52,985 bases of DNA, from the NCBI GenBank assembly GCA_026391595.1, contig JAPLDY010000048.1, positions 1 through 52,985 on the forward strand, given 5' to 3'. Positions 14,620-25,104 of this stretch are shown piece after piece. The translations under genes were made by a program, and so were the position numbers. Origin of the DNA: Bacteroidia bacterium. Lineage in GTDB: Bacteria > Bacteroidota > Bacteroidia > Bacteroidales > VadinHA17. Numbering within the stretch: the stretch's first letter is position 1; every line of letters starts with the position of its first letter. The notes below the pieces were generated by a model. That model had not been told where the DNA came from, made no database searches, and saw nothing but the letters and a program-made list of their open reading frames with translations.

Positions 14620-14660
14620 CACAATGATTAACGGCTCAAAATTAAGAAAATTACGGAATG

Positions 14661-14784
14661 TACTCATCCCCCCGGCTCCCCTTCTCTACTGAAGCAAAGA
14701 AGGGGGGCTATTTAATTGTATACTAATGAATTCCCCCTCTTTGCGCCGACTGGCGGAGAGAAGGGGAACACAAAGGGGTGAGTA
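14661..14784. repeat. Paired-hairpin intergenic element A
   Basis: The element is bounded by TACTCATCCCCCC and GGGGTGAGTA, which are inverted copies of each other. Inside are two C-run/G-run hairpins, the second containing CCCCCTCTTTGC and GGCGGAGAGAAGGGG. The same termini and the CCCCCTCTTTGC core recur at 24969-25079. It lies between the DUF6452-like gene and the acyl-CoA ligase and codes for nothing visible. Confidence 0.75.
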
Positions 14785-14798
14785 CGTGTTAACGCTTC

Positions 14799-16643
14799 TT
14801 AAAATTTCGGCAATCCCTTAAGGATACCTGTAATCCCATTCCTGATCCTCGACAGCACGTTTGAATCTTTTTCGCCACCAAAGTAGATCTCAGCAATCTG
14901 GTCCTTATACCGTTCCATTAGGTAATTTCTGCGAAGCTTGAGTGTAGGCGAGAGCTCCCCATTCTGGGGTGTCCATTCTTCGGTTACCAGGCGGATTCTC
15001 TTTATCTGTTCATGTTCGCCCAGTGATTTATTTACTTCCCTGACTTCCCTGGAATATCTTTCGATGACCTCAGGAACATCTATAAGATCGCTGTTGTCGC
15101 GGAACTGGATCTTGTGTTCTGAACACCAGTCGTGAAGAATTACAAAGTTCGGAGAGATAAGGGCACTGGCGAACTTCTCATTTTCTCCAATGACCATGAC
15201 CTGTTCGATATAGATTGATTCCTTGAGCTTGTTCTCTATTATCTGTGGTGCAATATATTTGCCGGCAGAAAGCTTGAACATCTCCTTTTTCCTGTCGGTT
15301 ATTTTCAGCCATTTCTCATCTTCAAAGACTCCTATGTCTCCTGTATGGAACCATCCATCCATATCAATTACCTCTGCAGTAAGCTCCGGCGCCTTATAGT
15401 AGCCCATCATTACGTTAATACCACGGCACAGGATCTCTCCGTCGTCAGCTATTTTAACTTCAACATTTTCGAGTACCGGTCCGACAGTTCCAAATCTTAT
15501 CTCCGGTATCCTGAATGGATTAACCGCTATTACGGGTGATGTCTCGGTAAGTCCGTAGCCCTGGATAACAGGCATACCTGCAGCCCAGAAGATCCTTTCC
15601 AGTCTCGATTGAAGTGCTGCACCTCCTGATACAATAACCTGAACCTCACCGCCAAGAGCTTCACGCCACTTGCTGAAAATAAGCTTGCTGGCAATACTAA
15701 GCCTGAGCTTGTAAAATGTAGAATTGTTATGAAGCCTGTATCTGAGCCCCAGGCTTACCGCCCAGAAAAATATTGTCTTCTTCACCCATGTAAGATCCTT
15801 TCCTTTTGCCAGGATGTTGTCGTAAACCTTTTCAAGTAAACGGGGTACTGTGTTGAAAATATGTGGTTTTACTTGCCTGGCATCATCGGCGACTGTTGCC
15901 ATGTTCTCGACATAGTAAACACTGATGCCTTTATACTGAAAATGATAATTCATCATTCTTTCATACACATGGCAGAGGGGAAGGAAGCTCATAGCCCTGT
16001 GACCATATCCAAGATCATGCGCTTTTGATGTAGATAATGCATTGGATACCAGGTTTATGTGGGACAACATGACTCCCTTTGAGTTCCCTGTGGTTCCGGA
16101 GGTATATATAATGGTAACAAGGTCCTCAGGCTTGATGCTGTTCCTTATTTCAGTGACGATAGGGGCGTACTTGTCCGCATTGCTTTTGCCAGATTTGATT
16201 ATCTCGGAAAATGACCTCACTCCATCGACAGGATCGAAAGAAAAAACTTTATTAAGGAGACCTGACTTTTCAGCTGTAGGTTTAACCTTGTTGAAAATAC
16301 TTTTGTTTCCCAGGATAATTGCCTTTACTTCAGAGTGGTTCAGGATGTAACTGTACTCCTCAAAGCTTATAGTCGGATAGATAGGCACGTGGATGAAGCC
16401 GGCCTGGGCAAGCCCCATGTCGACAAAATTCCATTCGGGCTTATTGCCGCTGATGGTGGCAATTTTATCGCCTTTCTGAAAGCCCATGGAAAGCAAACCA
16501 TAACTTACCCAGTTGACATTATCACGGACTTCTTTGGTAGAGTATGTTATCCATTCCTTGTCATGCTTTCCGCCGTACATATTTTTACGGGGATATTTCT
16601 CAACATTAAGGTCGATAAGATCAAATGTTCTTCTGATTTCCAT
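14799..16643 (-). CDS. Long-chain fatty acid-CoA ligase (AMP-forming)
   Basis: This 614-residue adenylate-forming enzyme activates a long-chain fatty acid to acyl-AMP and then to acyl-CoA. The P-loop-like motif IYTSGTTGNSKGVMLSH sits near residue 180. The family motif GYGLTETSPV follows near 370. The hinge region reads GWFHTGDIGVFE ... ITDRKKEMFKLSAGKYIAP, including the catalytic-lysine region of the C-terminal domain. The protein is cytoplasmic or membrane-peripheral. Length and motifs match the FAA1/FadD15-type ligases common in Bacteroidota. The 212-bp gap upstream, toward alaS, is AT-rich with no recognisable RNA or hairpin. The stop lies 15 bp past repeat element A. Confidence 0.93.
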   Translation of the reverse strand: MEIRRTFDLIDLNVEKYPRKNMYGGKHDKEWITYSTKEVRDNVNWVSYGLLSMGFQKGDKIATISGNKPEWNFVDMGLAQAGFIHVPIYPTISFEEYSYILNHSEVKAIILGNKSIFNKVKPTAEKSGLLNKVFSFDPVDGVRSFSEIIKSGKSNADKYAPIVTEIRNSIKPEDLVTIIYTSGTTGNSKGVMLSHINLVSNALSTSKAHDLGYGHRAMSFLPLCHVYERMMNYHFQYKGISVYYVENMATVADDARQVKPHIFNTVPRLLEKVYDNILAKGKDLTWVKKTIFFWAVSLGLRYRLHNNSTFYKLRLSIASKLIFSKWREALGGEVQVIVSGGAALQSRLERIFWAAGMPVIQGYGLTETSPVIAVNPFRIPEIRFGTVGPVLENVEVKIADDGEILCRGINVMMGYYKAPELTAEVIDMDGWFHTGDIGVFEDEKWLKITDRKKEMFKLSAGKYIAPQIIENKLKESIYIEQVMVIGENEKFASALISPNFVILHDWCSEHKIQFRDNSDLIDVPEVIERYSREVREVNKSLGEHEQIKRIRLVTEEWTPQNGELSPTLKLRRNYLMERYKDQIAEIYFGGEKDSNVLSRIRNGITGILKGLPKF

Positions 16644-16855
16644 TTTCCAGAGTTTTTCCTATAGCAATTCTAATAAATAATTTCAAACAAACGCCAACAG
16701 AAATTACGAATGATTTTAAATGGTTGTATAATACAGAGATAGCCAATATTATAAAAAAGAATATTTGCTGAGATATTTCGACTGCCAGGAAAGAAGGAAT
16801 GGGAGAAGGGGAGAGTGAATGAGCGCTTATTCCGGATCCTGTTACCCTGTATTGC

Positions 16856-19486
<2,631 letters not shown>

Positions 19487-19528
19487 ATGTAATTGTAGAT
19501 CTGTTATGTAAATATACCCGAATATAGG

Positions 19529-19560
19529 CTTGTAAAATTAATTTATTTGATTTAGATTTG
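19529..19560 (+). promoter_or_regulatory. Candidate promoter of the M23 peptidase operon
   Basis: TAGATTTG (19553-19560) fits the TAnnTTTG -7 box. CTTG at 19529-19532 lies 20 bp upstream of it, a near match to the -33 TTTG element. The first gene starts at 19602. The call rests on motif and spacing only. Confidence 0.4.
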
Positions 19561-19601
19561 TCGATTACCAGAAATAAAAATTCGGAATCCATCCTCGGAA
19601 A

Positions 19602-20570
19602 ATGGGTAAGCGGAAATATTTCCTAGATCTTAATGATCTGCAATACAAGCAGGTAAGACATTCTCTTGGAAAGAGGTTCCTGCACTTTCTTTTCTGGTTT
19701 TCCGGTTCAGCTGCAATAACCATGTTTTATGTGGTTATGTTCCAGAATTCATTCGGTTCTCCAAAGGAGCGCCTTCTGAACCAGCAGATTGACAATATAA
19801 AGCTAGAGTATTCTATTGCAAACAGGGAGCTGGATCTTTCAATGAGAGCAATAAAAAGCCTCAAAATGTCAGATGAAATAAGATACCGCCCTGTATTGAA
19901 AATGGACAGCATCCCATGGTCGATAAGAAATCCTGGTTTTGGTGGTACTGAGAGGTTCAGAGACCTTGACGGGTATAAGTTCAGCTACCTTATGAAGTCA
20001 ACCCGCGAAAGGATAGAAGAGATGAAAAACATGGCAAATGTTCAGAATGAATCCTTTATTACAATAAAAGACAAGTCTGAGGAATGGCAGTTTGAGATGG
20101 ATCATCTGCCTGCAATAAGCCCTGTCGATCCCTCCTTCAGATTGGGTGATAGATTTGGTTTCCGCGAAAAACACCCTATTTTAGGATATGGAAGGATGCA
20201 TTATGGTCAGGATTTCGAGGTTCCTTATAATACAAAGGTTTATGCAACAGGTGATGGCAAGGTTGTCGAATCAGGCTTTAATACCGGTGGTTTCGGAAAT
20301 TATGTCGTTATCGACCATGGATTTGGACTTGTTTCAATCTACGCCCATCTGAGCTCGATCAACGTACCTAAGGATATAAATGTGAAAAGAGGAGACCTGG
20401 TAGGTCTGAGTGGAAGTACGGGAAGCTTGTCTACAGGCCCGCATCTGCATTATGAGATCAAAAAGTACGGTTCTCCTATTAATGCCATAAATTTCTTCAA
20501 CAACGATATCACTCAGGAAGAATTCAATGAGATGATCCAGGCTTTCGGATCAAATTCAATATTCAGATAA
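19602..20570 (+). CDS. M23 (LytM) family metallopeptidase, membrane-anchored, first copy
   Basis: This 322-residue protein has an N-terminal cytoplasmic stub, one membrane span (about 30-50, FWFSGSAAITMFYVVMFQN) and a periplasmic coiled-coil segment (about 55-150). A C-terminal LytM peptidase domain follows (about 180-300). All zinc ligands are present: His and Asp in MHYGQDF, and the HLH of GPHLHYEI, plus the catalytic-site His in YAHLS. It therefore looks like an active endopeptidase cutting peptidoglycan cross-bridges, tethered to the inner membrane. It is followed 79 bp later by a paralog of the same design, and both head an operon running to 24911. A role in cell-wall growth or division is inference. 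Confidence 0.9.
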   Translation: MGKRKYFLDLNDLQYKQVRHSLGKRFLHFLFWFSGSAAITMFYVVMFQNSFGSPKERLLNQQIDNIKLEYSIANRELDLSMRAIKSLKMSDEIRYRPVLKMDSIPWSIRNPGFGGTERFRDLDGYKFSYLMKSTRERIEEMKNMANVQNESFITIKDKSEEWQFEMDHLPAISPVDPSFRLGDRFGFREKHPILGYGRMHYGQDFEVPYNTKVYATGDGKVVESGFNTGGFGNYVVIDHGFGLVSIYAHLSSINVPKDINVKRGDLVGLSGSTGSLSTGPHLHYEIKKYGSPINAINFFNNDITQEEFNEMIQAFGSNSIFR

Positions 20571-20634
20571 TCAGACTACTGTTCATTTTTACTTCCATCC
20601 CGGCCTTCCTTCGCTTGTTTTTTTATGAATTGAT

Positions 20635-20642
20635 TATCTTTG
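20635..20642 (+). promoter_or_regulatory. Candidate near-leaderless -7 box before the second M23 gene
   Basis: TATCTTTG is a perfect TAnnTTTG match that ends seven bases before the ATG at 20650. A CTTG lies 17 bp upstream, slightly closer than usual for a -33 box. It suggests that the second peptidase gene also has its own start of transcription with almost no leader. Confidence 0.35.
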
Positions 20643-20649
20643 TACGGAT

Positions 20650-21621
20650 ATGCCAAAATCTAGATACAGGTTTAATCCAGAATCGCTGAGCTTCGACAAG
20701 ATAAAGCTGGGATTCAGAGCTGTGATGCTGAGAGGCCTCTCTTATTTTGTCGCTTCACTTCTTGTTGCTGTAGTATATTATGCGATATATGCTTCATTCT
20801 TCGATTCACCCAAAGAGAAAGCCCTTCTGCGCGAAATAGACCAGCTTACCCTTCAGTATGACATTATCCATCGTGATATGGAAAACCTCGACAAGGTTAT
20901 CGGTCAGCTTGAAGAGAAGGATGACAATCTTTACAGAACTATCTTTGAAGCGGAACCAATTACTTCAACCCAGAGAGAAAGCGGAGTGGGAGGTATTAAC
21001 AGGTACAAGGACCTTGAGGGCTATGATAATTCCAGCATCGTAATCGAAACAGCCAAAAAACTTGATCATCTGAAGAAAAAAGTTGTTGTCCAGTCAAAAT
21101 CTTACGATGAATTGTACAACCTTGCCAGGAGAAAAGAGGAGATGCTGGGATCAATACCGGCCATTATGCCTATATCCGACAAGAATCTTATTCGTGTAGC
21201 TTCAGGATTCGGGCTGAGGATACATCCCTTTTATAGAATTGTCAAATTCCATGCTGGCATGGATTTTACCGCACCCCTGGGAACCGAAGTGTATGCGACA
21301 GGCAACGGGACTGTAAAAGATGTAATGCCGTCCCTGAGAGGTTTGGGTAATCATATTATTATTGATCACGGCTTTGGCATAACATCAATTTATGCGCATC
21401 TTGACAGATTCAATGTACGGAAGGGACAGAAAGTTCAAAGAGGTGATGTGATCGGATTTGTTGGAAGTACCGGGATGTCACTGGCAAACCACCTTCATTA
21501 TGAAATTAAGGTTAACGGTAAAAATGTAGATCCGGTAAACTATTACTTTAACGATCTTACACCTGCAGAATACGAAAAGATGATTGAGATTGCCTCGAAT
21601 ACCGGACAATCATTTGATTAG
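20650..21621 (+). CDS. M23 (LytM) family metallopeptidase, membrane-anchored, second copy
   Basis: This 323-residue paralog of the preceding gene has the same plan: a short basic N terminus, one membrane span (about 27-47, LSYFVASLLVAVVYYAIYAS), a coiled coil (about 55-155) and a LytM domain (about 185-300). The zinc site is complete: HAGMDF supplies His and Asp, ANHLHYEI supplies HLH, and YAHLD holds the other conserved His. The two proteins share SPKEKALL/SPKERLL-type and GGxxRxxDLxGY blocks, so they arose by tandem duplication. Both copies retain catalytic residues, unlike the degenerate EnvC/NlpD activators. The CapA-like gene follows after 18 bp. Confidence 0.9.
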   Translation: MPKSRYRFNPESLSFDKIKLGFRAVMLRGLSYFVASLLVAVVYYAIYASFFDSPKEKALLREIDQLTLQYDIIHRDMENLDKVIGQLEEKDDNLYRTIFEAEPITSTQRESGVGGINRYKDLEGYDNSSIVIETAKKLDHLKKKVVVQSKSYDELYNLARRKEEMLGSIPAIMPISDKNLIRVASGFGLRIHPFYRIVKFHAGMDFTAPLGTEVYATGNGTVKDVMPSLRGLGNHIIIDHGFGITSIYAHLDRFNVRKGQKVQRGDVIGFVGSTGMSLANHLHYEIKVNGKNVDPVNYYFNDLTPAEYEKMIEIASNTGQSFD

Positions 21622-21639
21622 GAAAACCGGTTTCATGTC

Positions 21640-22713
21640 ATGAAGAGAAATCTTATTCAAATCCCGATTTTCTTATTTATTATAAGTTGCATGCAGTTCC
21701 GGGTTTTTGCCGGATCAGCTGATACTTCACATGTTGAGAAGAGGGTTACCATTGCCGGTGTCGGAGACATAATGCTGGGAACTGCATTCCCCTCAACCAG
21801 GTTCCTTCCCCCTCACGATAATCCGTTATTGCTCCTTGGCAACCTTGCCGATACACTGGCTCAATCTGACATTACCTTTGGAAACCTTGAGGGTTCATTC
21901 CTTAACGATGGGGAGCCTGCAAAAAAATGCAGGGACACTACTATCTGCTACCTTTTCAGAATGCCGGAACGATATGCAGGTGCACTTGCTGTTTCCGGAT
22001 TCGATTTTCTCAGCCTCGCCAATAACCATTTCGGCGATTTTGGCTATCCCTCGCGGATGCGCACCATGCAGCTGCTCGATTCACTCGGAATCAGATATGG
22101 AGGACTCATTGAATACCCGTTTTCATTTCAAATTAGAGACAGCCTCCTTTTCGGCTTCTGTGCATTTGCACCCAATGCAGGCACTGTTAGCATAAATGAG
22201 ATTGCAGAGGCTGAAAAAATTGTAAAGCACCTTGCAGACACATGCGACATTGTGATTGTATCATTTCATGGCGGTGCCGAAGGAGCAGATTATCAGCATG
22301 TTCCAAAAACTGATGAGATGTTTTATACTGAGAACAGGGGCAACGTTTATAATTTTGCACACAGGATGATCGATGCCGGCGCTGATGTCATATTCGGACA
22401 CGGGCCTCATATAACACGTGCTGTGGAAGTCTATAATGACAGGTTCATTGCATATAGTCTCGGAAATTTCTGCACTTACGGGAGATTCAATCTATCGGGC
22501 CCGAACGGGATTGCTCCGGTAATCAGGATCAATGTTGATACAACCGGCAAGTTCCTGTCCGGAAGGATAATCCCTGTTTACCAGGAATACTCCGGAGGAG
22601 TTAGAATTGATCCGGGTAAACGAGTTATTCAGAAGATCCATGATCTTACAGCTGCTGATTTCCCTGATGCAGTGATCAAAATAAATGAGTACGGAGAAAT
22701 ATCATATAAATAA
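21640..22713 (+). CDS. CapA-family (poly-gamma-glutamate synthesis type) metallophosphatase, exported
   Basis: This 357-residue protein has an N-terminal signal sequence (MKRNLIQIPIFLFIISC, possibly a lipobox at Cys17). The PGA_cap fold is recognisable from GVGDIMLGTAFP, ITFGNLEGSFL, LSLANNHFGDFG, IVSFHGGAE, FGHGPHITRAVE and IAYSLGNFC, which together supply the metal-binding Asp, Asn and His residues. The family includes CapA of poly-gamma-glutamate capsule synthesis, but most bacterial members have no known substrate. No capB, capC or pgs genes lie nearby, so a capsule role should not be assumed. Its position between cell-wall hydrolases and a MerR regulator suggests an envelope function. 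Confidence 0.88.
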   Translation: MKRNLIQIPIFLFIISCMQFRVFAGSADTSHVEKRVTIAGVGDIMLGTAFPSTRFLPPHDNPLLLLGNLADTLAQSDITFGNLEGSFLNDGEPAKKCRDTTICYLFRMPERYAGALAVSGFDFLSLANNHFGDFGYPSRMRTMQLLDSLGIRYGGLIEYPFSFQIRDSLLFGFCAFAPNAGTVSINEIAEAEKIVKHLADTCDIVIVSFHGGAEGADYQHVPKTDEMFYTENRGNVYNFAHRMIDAGADVIFGHGPHITRAVEVYNDRFIAYSLGNFCTYGRFNLSGPNGIAPVIRINVDTTGKFLSGRIIPVYQEYSGGVRIDPGKRVIQKIHDLTAADFPDAVIKINEYGEISYK

Positions 22714-22718
22714 TTGCC

Positions 22719-23054
22719 ATGCCATACAAGGAAAAACCCATCGAGAAGCTTTATTATCCAATAGGCGAAGTAGCTGAAATGCTTGATGTTCCCGTATCGA
22801 CCGTGAGGTTCTGGGAAAATGAGTTCAATATCCTGAAACCGATGAAGAACAAGAAAGGCAACAGGATGTTCACTCCTGAAGATATCAGGAATCTGAAAAT
22901 CATTCATCATCTTCTAAAGGAAGAAGGTATGACTCTTCCTGGTGCAAAAAAGAGACTTTCAGGCAAACGGGAGGAGACAGATTACAAGTACGAGATCAAC
23001 GAATCTCTGCAAAAGATAAAGGGACTCCTGTTAGATTTAAGGGATAATATATGA
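22719..23054 (+). CDS. MerR-family transcriptional regulator
   Basis: This 111-residue protein has a MerR-type winged helix: YYPIGEVAEMLDVPVSTVRF (about 12-31), WENEFNILKP, and NRMFTPEDIRNLKIIHHLLK. It has only a short C-terminal helix (YEINESLQKIKGLLLDLRDN) and no metal- or drug-binding domain. This compact form, typically preceding a Nif3-like gene, is common in Bacteroidota. It follows the CapA-like gene by 5 bp, and its stop overlaps the ATG of the next gene (ATGA, 23051-23054). What it senses and controls cannot be read from the sequence. Confidence 0.9.
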   Translation: MPYKEKPIEKLYYPIGEVAEMLDVPVSTVRFWENEFNILKPMKNKKGNRMFTPEDIRNLKIIHHLLKEEGMTLPGAKKRLSGKREETDYKYEINESLQKIKGLLLDLRDNI

Positions 23055-24145
23055 AACTAAAAGACCTTACTTTATTTCTCGATTCTGCAATACCTCTTTC
23101 ATTCCAGGAGGGGTACGACAATGCCGGTTTGCAGTATGGATTACCTGATAAGGAGATCAATTCAGCTCTGGTAACCCTTGATGTAACAGAAGAGGTGCTT
23201 GATGAGGCGGGATATGCAGGCTGTGACGTTATAATTTCCCATCACCCGGTAATATTCAACGGAATAAAACAGCTGTCAGGCAAAAATATTACTGAAAAGA
23301 TCATTTTAAAAGCAGTAAAGCAGGATGTGGCAATTTATTCAGCTCATACAAACCTTGATGTTCTTGAGAACGGAGTCAGCAGGAAAATGGCAGAGAAACT
23401 TGGGCTGAAGAATATTCATGTGCTGGTGCCTCTGAAGAACAAATTACTTAAGCTAGTAACTTTCGTTCCTGAGGAGCATATAGAGAAGGTCAGGGAGGCC
23501 ATCTTCAGTGCTGGGGCCGGAGCCATTGGAGGTTATGACAAATGCAGTTTCGTAACACCGGGAACAGGCAGTTTCAGGGCAGGAGAGGGGACAAAACCTT
23601 TTGCGGGAGAAAAAGGGAAGCTTCATTTTGAGAAAGAGGTAAGGTTTGAGACCGTTTTATTCTCCCACCTGAAAAGCAGGGTTGTAAGGGCGCTCCTGGA
23701 TACGCATCCCTATGAAGAGGTTGCATATGATCTTTATCCTCTTGAAAATGATAACGTGAGGTCAGGACTGGGTTGTACCGGAGAATTTGCTGATCCGGTA
23801 AGCGAAAAAGAATTTCTTGAGACACTAGGATCCGTTTTTACGGCAAAAGGGATAAAATTCTCAAAGCCAACAGGAAAACAAATTAAGAAAGTTGCCATGT
23901 GCGGTGGTGCCGGAGGTCCGTTCATTGGCGATGCGATTGCTTCAGGTGCCGGTGCCTACGTTTGCGCAGATATAAGATATCATAGTTTCTTTGAGGCTGA
24001 CAACAAGATCCTGCTGGCAGATATTGGCCACTTTGAAAGCGAAAAATTCTCAACTGAAATATTATACGATCTAATTATCAAAAAATTCCCTAAATTTGCA
24101 GTCCGGTTTTCAGAAATAAATACGAATCCGATAAACTATTTGTAA
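23051..24145 (+). CDS. Nif3-like dinuclear metal center protein
   Basis: This 364-residue cytoplasmic protein belongs to the NIF3/YbgI family, a toroidal hexamer with a dinuclear metal site (sometimes annotated as GTP cyclohydrolase 1 type 2). The metal-binding motifs are ISHHPVIFNG near residue 63, SAHTNLD near 97 and, at the C-terminal end, DIGHFESE. A central insertion of about 100 residues (KLVTFVPEEHIEKVREAIF ... DTHPYEEVAYDLYPL) has the PII/CutA-like fold of the long form of this family. It is translationally coupled to the MerR gene. The zinc-ribbon gene begins one base after its stop. The biochemical role of the family is still unsettled. Confidence 0.93.
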   Translation: MKLKDLTLFLDSAIPLSFQEGYDNAGLQYGLPDKEINSALVTLDVTEEVLDEAGYAGCDVIISHHPVIFNGIKQLSGKNITEKIILKAVKQDVAIYSAHTNLDVLENGVSRKMAEKLGLKNIHVLVPLKNKLLKLVTFVPEEHIEKVREAIFSAGAGAIGGYDKCSFVTPGTGSFRAGEGTKPFAGEKGKLHFEKEVRFETVLFSHLKSRVVRALLDTHPYEEVAYDLYPLENDNVRSGLGCTGEFADPVSEKEFLETLGSVFTAKGIKFSKPTGKQIKKVAMCGGAGGPFIGDAIASGAGAYVCADIRYHSFFEADNKILLADIGHFESEKFSTEILYDLIIKKFPKFAVRFSEINTNPINYL

Positions 24146-24146
24146 G

Positions 24147-24911
24147 ATGGAAAAAAACAAATCACACGAAGCTGAGATCCCTGTTGAAGATAGATTGCGT
24201 GCATTATACAGTCTGCAGCTGGTTGATTCAGAAATAGATAAGATAAAGACTCTCAGAGGCGAACTGCCCCTTGAAGTACAGGACCTCGAGGACGATATAG
24301 CCGGGCTGGAGACCAGACTTGGTAATCTGAGGGATGAAGTTCTGGCTCTTGAAAAGAACGTTCAGAAGAAGCATAATGAGATAACTGATTCAGAAGGCCT
24401 GATAAAAAAATACGAAGAGCAGCAAAAGAATGTAAGGAATAACAGAGAATTCGATTCACTTTCAAAAGAGATTGAATATCAGAATCTTGAAATAGAACTC
24501 TATAATAAGAAGATTAAGGAGTTCACGGTTCAGATAGATGAAAAGAAAGTGCTTATCAAGGAATCGGAAACTACCCTCGATGAAAGGAAATCTGATCTTG
24601 AGACTAAAAATTCGGAACTTGAGGAGATAATCATGGATACTCAGAAGGAAGAGGAAGGCCTGTATAAGAAGCTGGATAAAGTCCAGAATCTCATTGAGGA
24701 CCGTTTGCTCACCGCATATAAGAGAATTCGTTCAAATGCAAGGAACGGGCTGGCTGTTGTTCCGGTTCAGCGCGATGCTTGCGGCGGATGCTTTAACCAG
24801 ATACCTCCGCAGAGGCAGCTCGACATCAAATCGAGGAAGAAAATTATTGTTTGCGAATACTGCGGCCGTATTCTCGTGGACGATGAAATAATAAAGGAAG
24901 GTAAGATATAA
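24147..24911 (+). CDS. Coiled-coil protein with C-terminal C4 zinc ribbon
   Basis: This 254-residue protein is almost entirely heptad-type coiled coil from about residue 20 to 195. A C-terminal zinc ribbon follows: ACGGCFNQIPPQRQLDIKS and IIVCEYCGRIL, with two CxxC pairs about 22 residues apart. It matches the zf-RING_7 / CT398-like family, found in many bacteria directly after a Nif3 gene. Its job is unknown, though the fold resembles that of nucleic-acid or secretion-associated coiled-coil factors. It is the last gene of the M23-CapA-MerR-Nif3 transcription unit and is followed by a strong terminator. Confidence 0.9.
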   Translation: MEKNKSHEAEIPVEDRLRALYSLQLVDSEIDKIKTLRGELPLEVQDLEDDIAGLETRLGNLRDEVLALEKNVQKKHNEITDSEGLIKKYEEQQKNVRNNREFDSLSKEIEYQNLEIELYNKKIKEFTVQIDEKKVLIKESETTLDERKSDLETKNSELEEIIMDTQKEEEGLYKKLDKVQNLIEDRLLTAYKRIRSNARNGLAVVPVQRDACGGCFNQIPPQRQLDIKSRKKIIVCEYCGRILVDDEIIKEGKI

Positions 24912-24934
24912 ATCCTGAGAGGAATGAGAGATAC

Positions 24935-24961
24935 GCCGGTCAGTTTCTGACCGGCTTTTTT
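24935..24961 (+). terminator. Rho-independent terminator after the zinc-ribbon gene
   Basis: A perfect 9-bp stem (GCCGGTCAG / CTGACCGGC) with a TTT loop is followed at once by six T. It lies 23 bp after the stop codon at 24911 and ends the 19602-24911 unit. Confidence 0.93.
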
Positions 24962-24968
24962 ATTCATG

Positions 24969-25079
24969 TACTCACCCCCTTAGTCCCCCTATCTACTTCG
25001 AAAAGAGGGGTAAATGTCAGATACAGAATAAATTACACCCCCTCTTTGCTTTAGCAGAGAGGGGGTTGGGGGGTGAGTT
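24969..25079. repeat. Paired-hairpin intergenic element B
   Basis: It starts TACTCACCCCC and ends GGGGTGAGTT, so its termini are inverted and nearly identical to those of the element at 14661-14784. Its second hairpin pairs CCCCCTCTTTGC with GCAGAGAGGGGG and shares the core sequence of element A. It lies between the terminator at 24935-24961 and hutU. Confidence 0.75.
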
Positions 25080-25104
25080 AGTGAAGAGAAAAGAGAAAAA
25101 GGTA

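What the first reader, a model, noticed from the sequence alone, without database searches (positions are those of the whole stretch)
14661..25079. Two related ~110-125 bp intergenic elements with shared termini (A and B)
Seen: 14661-14784 and 24969-25079 share TACTCA-C(n) / G(n)-TGAGT inverted ends, a first hairpin, an AT-rich middle of similar length and a second hairpin beginning CCCCCTCTTTGC and closing GAGAG-GGGG. They are 10 kb apart in unrelated intergenic gaps and code for no protein. They look like a small non-autonomous mobile or REP-type family.
Basis: partly seen in the sequence, partly recalled or inferred. Interest (0 to 1): 0.55.

Follow-up and report, generated by a model that had tools for sequence, protein, structure and literature searches.

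The report
Twin-hairpin intergenic repeat of Bacteroidales
The two short intergenic pieces are copies of one old, widely scattered repeat that forms two hairpins and often sits just after the ends of genes; it is built like a known bacterial repeat type (REPINs), but that type's usual enzyme and signature were not found with it.

Summary
A (14657-14788) and B (24965-25083) are copies of one dispersed family; 28 two-ended copies were found in the loci taken from the host MAG (3.64 Mb), plus partial ones.

It occurs in 50 of 62 genomes examined of the genus; weaker matches of the same design occur in 16 of 247 sampled genomes of the order, all from other families. Hairpin tips often differ between the two arms of one copy, yet stay paired within each hairpin (229 of 236 tip pairs), and one mismatch per hairpin is nearly invariant. 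Copies are enriched between convergent genes (35 of 83, against 49 of 388 control gaps). No target duplication, autonomous parent or linked Y1 transposase was found. Orthologous sites in relatives are filled, inverted, remnant, empty, or hold a different hairpin element.

Best filed as a REPIN-like repeat without a known enzyme: a new variant of a known kind. Mover and host function are unproven.

The parts
14657..14788 (-). Element A, whole copy, inverted relative to B
   Evidence: Covariance model R1: 103.7 bits on -, 69.4 on +
14657..14673 (-). A, alpha end (reads GGGGGGATGAGTACATT on -)
   Evidence: sequence; end consensus from 89 copies
14678..14706 (-). A, hairpin 2 in element polarity (alpha side)
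14708..14732 (-). A, AT-rich polar centre
14733..14766 (-). A, hairpin 1 in element polarity (beta side), with the long tip CCGCC..GGCG
14775..14788 (-). A, beta end (CACGTACTCACCCC on -)
24965..25083 (+). Element B, whole copy
   Evidence: Covariance model R1: 112.6 bits on +, 76.9 on -
24965..24979 (+). B, beta end CATGTACTCACCCCC
24985..25010 (+). B, hairpin 1
25011..25037 (+). B, AT-rich polar centre
25038..25065 (+). B, hairpin 2 (CCCCCTCTTTGC..GCAGAGAGGGGG)
25068..25083 (+). B, alpha end GGGGGGTGAGTTAGTG
24935..24962 (+). Intrinsic-terminator-like hairpin and T-run of the upstream zinc-ribbon gene, directly before B (not part of the element)
   Evidence: a similar hairpin and T-run is seen at this place in many of the relatives printed

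Best explanation
A and B belong to an old, dispersed, non-coding family of REPIN-like twin-hairpin elements. Shown: each copy is two inverted arms (a conserved end plus an imperfect hairpin with a nearly fixed mismatch) around a short AT-rich centre that gives polarity; pairing inside each hairpin is kept while the tip sequence changes; copies lie close downstream of genes and are enriched between convergent genes; occupancy of a given site changes between species. Inferred: copies were spread in trans by an enzyme that reads the conserved ends and/or the folded single strand and leaves no target duplication (as Y1/HUH enzymes do), at a low rate now or in the past; they then persist by descent in gene 3' ends, where a stable hairpin is tolerated or useful, and decay by internal deletion to single hairpins or end remnants. 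The enzyme is not identified.
For: Copies: the two-end script found 47 copies in the loci then held, 28 of this genome and 19 of named MAGs; the model matches 50 of 62 genomes of the genus at E up to 0.01. Architecture: in 89 of 89 copies at least 8 of the first 16 bases pair with the last 20 in the best RNA fold; local tip pairing 229 of 236 pairs against 183 of 236 arm-to-arm, in the 59 of 89 copies with standard tips; mismatch C.A in 73 of 75 first hairpins and its mirror T.G in 64 of 69 second hairpins that the pattern could read. Ends: ACTCA of the beta end 98-100% conserved. Niche: 35 convergent, 35 tandem, 13 divergent of the 83 of 89 copies with both neighbours called, against 49 convergent of 388 control gaps, Fisher p=5e-9. 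Turnover: A absent in the six relatives viewed, G071, G072, G057, G038, G051, G078; B full in G066, inverted in G075, single hairpin in G073, damaged in G040, remnant in G077, absent in G071 and G044.
Against: No mobilising gene was found. Mean identity within a genome (0.795, 366 pairs) barely exceeds that between genomes (0.775, 2794 pairs) and the closest within-genome pair is 0.917, so there is no sign of recent transposition. Some sites are shared between species (L017 with G072; L002 and L034 with G073), so part of the distribution is vertical. Empty A sites in G071 and G072 carry about 20-25 bp of unrelated sequence, so no clean insertion was seen. A gene-end role is only inferred: no terminator was found inside B and only a 6-pair one at the edge of A; direction relative to tandem genes is unbiased (14 same, 21 opposite); the gap left between convergent genes without the element (median 35 bp) is not significantly shorter than control convergent gaps (77 bp; p=0.14). 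The copies compared are the well-scoring ones, which inflates conservation, and some are orthologous to each other, so the Fisher counts are not fully independent.
Confidence: 0.6

Rival explanations
1. A true REPIN family served by a Y1/RAYT enzyme that was lost from this genome or not recognised.
For: Inverted pairs of imperfect hairpins that can fold as one long hairpin or as a clover, as described for REPINs (PMC3116915, passages; here); location between convergent and unidirectional genes as described for REPs (PMC3733652, passages); no target duplication; genomes with 5 or more model matches have a Y1 match more often (40 of 44 against 11 of 16, Fisher p=0.048).
Against: No GTAG/CGTC foot; no copy in 31 Y1 loci, 91 kb; model matches and Y1 matches per genome not correlated (60 genomes, Spearman 0.21, p=0.11); in 27 of the 31 loci the Y motif could be read and was Y..Q, in 24 of these Q-x-x-HH, in none -NP. 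These loci are about one per genome; most of the Y1 matches were not read.
Confidence: 0.22
2. A classical MITE: a deletion derivative of a DDE-type insertion sequence, moved in trans through its terminal inverted repeats.
For: Long imperfect terminal inverted repeats, size mostly 110-130 bp, no coding capacity, many copies.
Against: No target duplication in 88 copies over repeat lengths 2-11 and boundary shifts: in the ten best settings identity was 0.30-0.36 against 0.24-0.28 for shuffled pairs, a small excess (top setting z=8.8 for 3 bases) but far from a duplication. No insertion sequence with these ends was recognised among the 87 end sites; the one pair 1.4 kb apart (contig C245) is a copy interrupted by an IS481 insertion, and of 15 unpaired or odd sites printed, those that resemble the family are truncated, single-hairpin or otherwise incomplete copies.
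Confidence: 0.17
3. A vertically inherited regulatory RNA or bidirectional terminator, not a mobile element.
For: Convergent-gene enrichment; compensatory changes in hairpin tips; other hairpin elements at the same sites in relatives.
Against: A and B are absent at orthologous sites in close relatives; B already follows a terminator-like hairpin and T-run; no T-run after the hairpins of A and B; no direction bias; no Rfam family at gathering score; for A one sub-threshold plant microRNA match, 24.3 bits against a cut-off of 90.
Confidence: 0.15

Closest known systems
REPINs (REP doublets forming hairpins; PMC3116915, 12 of 31 passages read)
   Same: Two inverted REP-like hairpin units with conserved ends and a less conserved spacer, compensatory changes, long-hairpin and clover folds, dispersed extragenic copies, single units as remnants.
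   Different: Different sequence, no GTAG foot, C/G-rich outer stem with ACTCA, AT-rich polar centre, no linked RAYT found, low identity among copies of one genome.
BIMEs and the GTAG and CGTC REP families (PMC3733652, passages read; BIMEs of E. coli recalled)
   Same: Palindromes in inverted pairs, extragenic, between convergent or unidirectional genes.
   Different: Foot tetranucleotide absent; units longer and closed by an outer stem; another lineage (CGTC repeats are reported in Bacteroidetes, but no CGTC foot is seen here).
MITEs (e.g. RUP, NEMIS, ERIC, as named in PMC3733652)
   Same: Short non-coding elements with terminal inverted repeats next to genes.
   Different: No target duplication and no parent insertion sequence found.
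'Atypical secondary structures' beside Y1 subclass 2.6 genes of Bacteroidetes (PMC6006769, passages read; figures not held)
   Same: Unusual hairpin structures in Bacteroidetes with copies elsewhere in the genome.
   Different: Their sequences could not be compared; no subclass 2.6 motif (YIH[QN]NP) was seen in the 27 Y1 loci whose motif I could read.

Membership tests
REP/REPIN | Imperfect palindromic units in inverted pairs forming hairpins | tested here: met
REP/REPIN | Conserved foot tetranucleotide (GTAG, CGTC or close variant) at the hairpin | tested here: not met
   Outer arm reads CAYGTACTCACCCCC, linker, hairpin; no GTAG/CGTC at the foot
REP/REPIN | Many copies, extragenic, mostly between convergent or unidirectional genes | tested here: met
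   70 of 83 copies convergent or tandem, convergent enriched
REP/REPIN | Cognate RAYT gene flanked by the repeats | tested here: not met
   No match better than E=0.15 in 31 Y1 loci; G039, G046, G048, G070 have 17-30 model matches and no Y1 match; Y1 loci beyond these 31 not examined
REP/REPIN | Excision intermediates in population reads | not testable with these tools
   no reads held
MITE | Terminal inverted repeats, short, non-coding | tested here: met
MITE | Target-site duplication | tested here: not met
   (88 copies)
MITE | Related autonomous insertion sequence with the same ends | tested here: inconclusive
   none recognised in this MAG; drafts may lack repeats; other genomes not searched for it
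Intrinsic terminator | GC hairpin followed by a T-run | tested here: not met
   None inside B, a 6-pair one at the edge of A; other copies not scanned
Rfam RNA families | Match at gathering score | tested here: not met
   whole window; A only, E-value mode

The most novel reading that the evidence does not exclude
Bacteroidales carry an order-wide superfamily of RAYT-independent twin-hairpin elements that act as exchangeable 3'-end parts. The outer ends and the architecture are kept, whole stems and tips are swapped as cassettes, and different subfamilies replace one another at the same gene-end positions in different species, moved by an enzyme not yet known (possibly the orphan Y1 subclass 1.2 proteins of the genus).
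Probability: 0.2. Interest if true: 0.7.

Novelty: new variant of a known kind. Interest (0 to 1): 0.46.

Why it matters
REP-type repeats are common small repeats of bacteria, and the published view is that REPINs depend on a RAYT enzyme. A widespread family with the same build but no such enzyme in sight makes two questions testable: what else can move such elements, and whether hairpins at gene ends are kept because they move or because they help where two converging genes meet. The family also gives a marker for a genus known here from draft MAGs.

Tried and rejected
Reading A and B in the same orientation: rejected; in the pairs of scores listed that I compared, a copy scores 10 bits or more better on one strand (the model was built from oriented copies, which favours this). 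CATG as a target duplication: rejected; left ends vary as CATG/CACG and right ends as CATG/CGTG, which fits a terminal repeat and not a direct repeat. An autonomous copy on contig C245: rejected; it is an IS481-family insertion in the tip of hairpin 2 with a 7-bp direct repeat. A Y1/REP pair: not supported. Phage carrier: no exact-pattern match in the viral contigs. Genus-only family: doubtful, which found weaker matches in other families of the order. Intrinsic terminator: no suitable tail in A or B. Short residual convergent gaps as evidence for a role: dropped, not significant (p=0.14; I had entered 34 of the 35 values, leaving out one by slip; one search uses all 35, median 35 bp in both). 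Literature: word searches, which returned papers on other repeats, and a search for three 12-letter strings of the consensus (one unrelated paper) showed no description of this family in the listings or in the passages read; (five of six words required) returned no paper. Supplements, figures and subscription journals were not searched.

Full report
WHAT IS THERE. Element A (14657-14788) lies between two minus-strand genes, a DUF6452 protein and an AMP-binding ligase; element B (24965-25083) lies between two plus-strand genes, a zinc-ribbon protein and urocanase (Pfam). A search of the host genome (G000, 3,637,412 bases in 265 contigs, 95.5% complete) with B gave 54 matching pieces at E up to 10. 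The end motif CATGYACTCAYCCCC at up to two mismatches gave 87 sites, against 6 for the reversed pattern. A script that pairs facing ends in the loci then held found 47 two-ended copies, 28 of this genome and 19 of named MAGs (two of the 28, L072 and L003, have doubtful ends). Further copies are halves or single hairpins.

ANATOMY. Aligned copies show a polar element: a beta end CATGTACTCACCCCC, a short linker, hairpin 1 CCCCCTCTCTGC-tip-GCAAAGAGGGGG, an AT-rich centre close to AATTTATTTATATACAATnATTTA, hairpin 2 CCCCCTTCTTTGC-tip-GCAGAGAAGGGGG, and an alpha end GGGGGRTGAGTACATG. Hairpin 1 is the reverse complement of hairpin 2, so the whole is two inverted arms around the centre. A is inverted relative to B: model scores 103.7 (-) against 69.4 (+) for A, and 112.6 (+) against 76.9 (-) for B. 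In all 89 distinct copies at least 8 of the first 16 bases pair with the last 20 in the best RNA fold; the rest folds either as one long hairpin (one hairpin loop, 53 copies) or with two or three loops (14 and 22 copies).

WHAT IS CONSERVED. In 59 of the 89 copies both tips have the standard length. Their tip pairs (two per hairpin) are paired locally in 229 of 236 cases, arm to arm in 183 of 236; in 39 of the 59 the first two tip bases differ between the two hairpins. So the local hairpin, and not only the long foldback, is kept. One position is kept mismatched: C opposite A in 73 of 75 readable first hairpins, and its mirror T opposite G in 64 of 69 readable second hairpins. ACTCA of the beta end is 98-100% conserved. 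These copies are the well-scoring ones, so conservation is somewhat overstated. A palindrome TCCCGCnGAAGCGGGA sits at one fixed place of the outer arm in some copies; of its 15 exact places in the genome, 10 coincide by coordinates with copies of this family, one of them (C86) a doubtful copy and one (C129) truncated.

WHERE IT SITS. With a simple ORF caller, 83 of 89 copies had neighbours on both sides: 35 convergent, 35 tandem, 13 divergent; 6 of 89 overlapped an ORF call by more than 45 bp. Gaps without an end motif in the fetched loci gave 49 convergent of 388 (Fisher p=5e-9); with gaps of at least 60 bp only, 27 of 200 (p=4e-7); a smaller control gave 10 of 67. Some copies are orthologous to each other, so the counts are not fully independent. 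In tandem pairs the median distance to the upstream stop is 12 bp and to the downstream start 41 bp, and the element's direction is unbiased (14 same, 21 opposite). The gap that remains between convergent genes without the element has a median of 35 bp (35 cases), against 77 bp in 49 control convergent gaps, which is not significant (p=0.14). REPs are reported to lie mainly between convergent and unidirectional genes (PMC3733652, passages).

DISTRIBUTION. The covariance model matched 53 of 117 genomes of the family at E up to 0.01: 50 of the 62 of the genus, and 3 of the 55 others with 1-2 weak matches each (30 candidates scored per genome, both strands counted, so these are matches, not copies). 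Coordinates of matches show that the genus holds the MAGs UBA10805 (G048) and LacPavin (G075) (inference). An exact core pattern over the collection of 84,980 species found 23 stretches, all in three named MAGs: Bacteroidia bacterium LacPavin_0920_SED3_MAG_41_20, Bacteroidales UBA10805 and Bacteroidales Prado086 (the own genome may be left out there). At order level the model matched 18 of 247 genomes at E up to 1e-4, two of the genus and 16 of other families. Twenty of those matches from nine genomes, read by eye, show the same build with other stems and ends such as TACCCACCCCC and CACCTCACCCC, except one single hairpin, L338. E-values are rough, and a model rich in C and G runs can overrate such sequences; common descent is not proven.

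HISTORY OF SITES. Site A is empty in the six relatives viewed; in G071 and G072 the flanks align closely and about 20-25 bp of unrelated sequence stand in its place. Site B, in 30 loci of which one is the own genome: full and same orientation in G066, full and inverted in G075, single hairpin in G073, damaged by a nested element with a 9-bp direct repeat in G040, end remnant in G077, no copy recognised by eye in 23 others (several hold other hairpin repeats, e.g. L167, L182, L184), and one locus (L183) too short to tell. In G083 a copy lies 20 bp beyond a fragment of the same gene on contig C209. For eight other copies I compared 20 orthologous stretches in four relatives by eye: same family at L017 (G072), L002 (G073) and L034 (G073, damaged); end remnant at L034 (G077) and perhaps L013 (G071); single hairpin at L008 (G072); twin-hairpin elements with other stems at L002 (G071, G077), L004 (G077), L014 (G072) and L017 (G077); nothing recognisable or other repeats in the rest. 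One of these other elements gives 40 matches in G077, 6 in G071, 5 in G000, 3 in G073 and none in G072 (both strands counted); its centre (GATATACAGTGACTTC) resembles ours. Mean identity among copies of one genome is 0.795 (366 pairs) and between genomes 0.775 (2794 pairs); the closest pair within a genome is 0.917. So the family looks old, slowly turning over, partly vertical, with no visible recent burst; draft assemblies could hide identical copies.

MOBILITY. No target duplication: over repeat lengths 2-11 and boundary shifts, the ten best settings had 0.30-0.36 identity against 0.24-0.28 in shuffled pairs (88 copies). The Y1 idea was tested with Pfam PF01797. This genome has two matches, one complete, next to five copies of a different repeat spaced 58 bp. 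In the genus 51 of 60 genomes have a match. The model found nothing better than E=0.15 in 31 Y1 loci. Model matches and Y1 matches are not correlated over 60 genomes (Spearman 0.21, p=0.11); genomes with at least 5 model matches do have a Y1 match more often (40 of 44 against 11 of 16, p=0.048), but four genomes with 17-30 model matches have none, and five genomes with Y1 have no model match. The complete Y1 protein here reads DHIH, WQ, YIQNQETHH, which fits subclass 1.2 of PMC6006769 (signature Y---Q--HH, passages), not the -NP motif of RAYTs; in 27 of the 31 loci the motif could be read, 24 with Q-x-x-HH and none with -NP.

READING. The anatomy is that of a REPIN: inverted REP-like units, conserved ends, variable spacer, compensatory changes, long-hairpin and clover folds, singles as remnants (PMC3116915, passages). 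Two defining REP features were tested and not met, the foot tetranucleotide and the linked RAYT, so I do not file it as a REPIN; I say that it works like one, with an unidentified mover (inference). A MITE reading fails on the missing target duplication and parent. A pure terminator or RNA reading is weakened by the changing occupancy, the missing tail in A and B and the lack of direction bias, but a benefit at gene ends remains possible and would explain why other hairpin elements take the same places.

Noticed in passing
L032:1980-2270 (G000:C261): The only complete Y1 gene of the genome lies beside five copies, spaced 58 bp, of a repeat with the palindrome CCGCTACGCGG or a variant; its motif fits a Y1 subclass said generally to lack flanking structures.
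   Followed up: partly
G000, 15 places: A short palindrome (TCCCGCnGAAGCGGGA plus tail) is inserted at one fixed position of the outer arms; 10 of its 15 exact places in the genome lie in copies of this family (one copy doubtful).
   Followed up: partly
L064:519-1947 (G000:C245): An IS481-family insertion sequence sits in the tip of hairpin 2 of one copy, with the 7-bp direct repeat ACGAAGT.
   Followed up: yes
L160 (G040), downstream of the zinc-ribbon gene: Another inverted-repeat element (CTACTCTTTATA ends) is nested in a hairpin tip with a 9-bp direct repeat GCAAAGCAG; a truncated copy in G000 (L070) may carry a relative.
   Followed up: no
L226:538-656 (G077) and L217: A sister twin-hairpin family with stems CCCTTCCCTTAA..TAAGGGAAGGG and a similar centre occupies sites that hold our family in G000.
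   Followed up: partly
L223 (G072), L224 (G073), L225 (G077): The convergent gap of the L014 copy is filled in each of three relatives by other repeats (CCCCCCTAAAGGGGGG pairs, or CTCTGTG..CACAGAG repeats).
   Followed up: no
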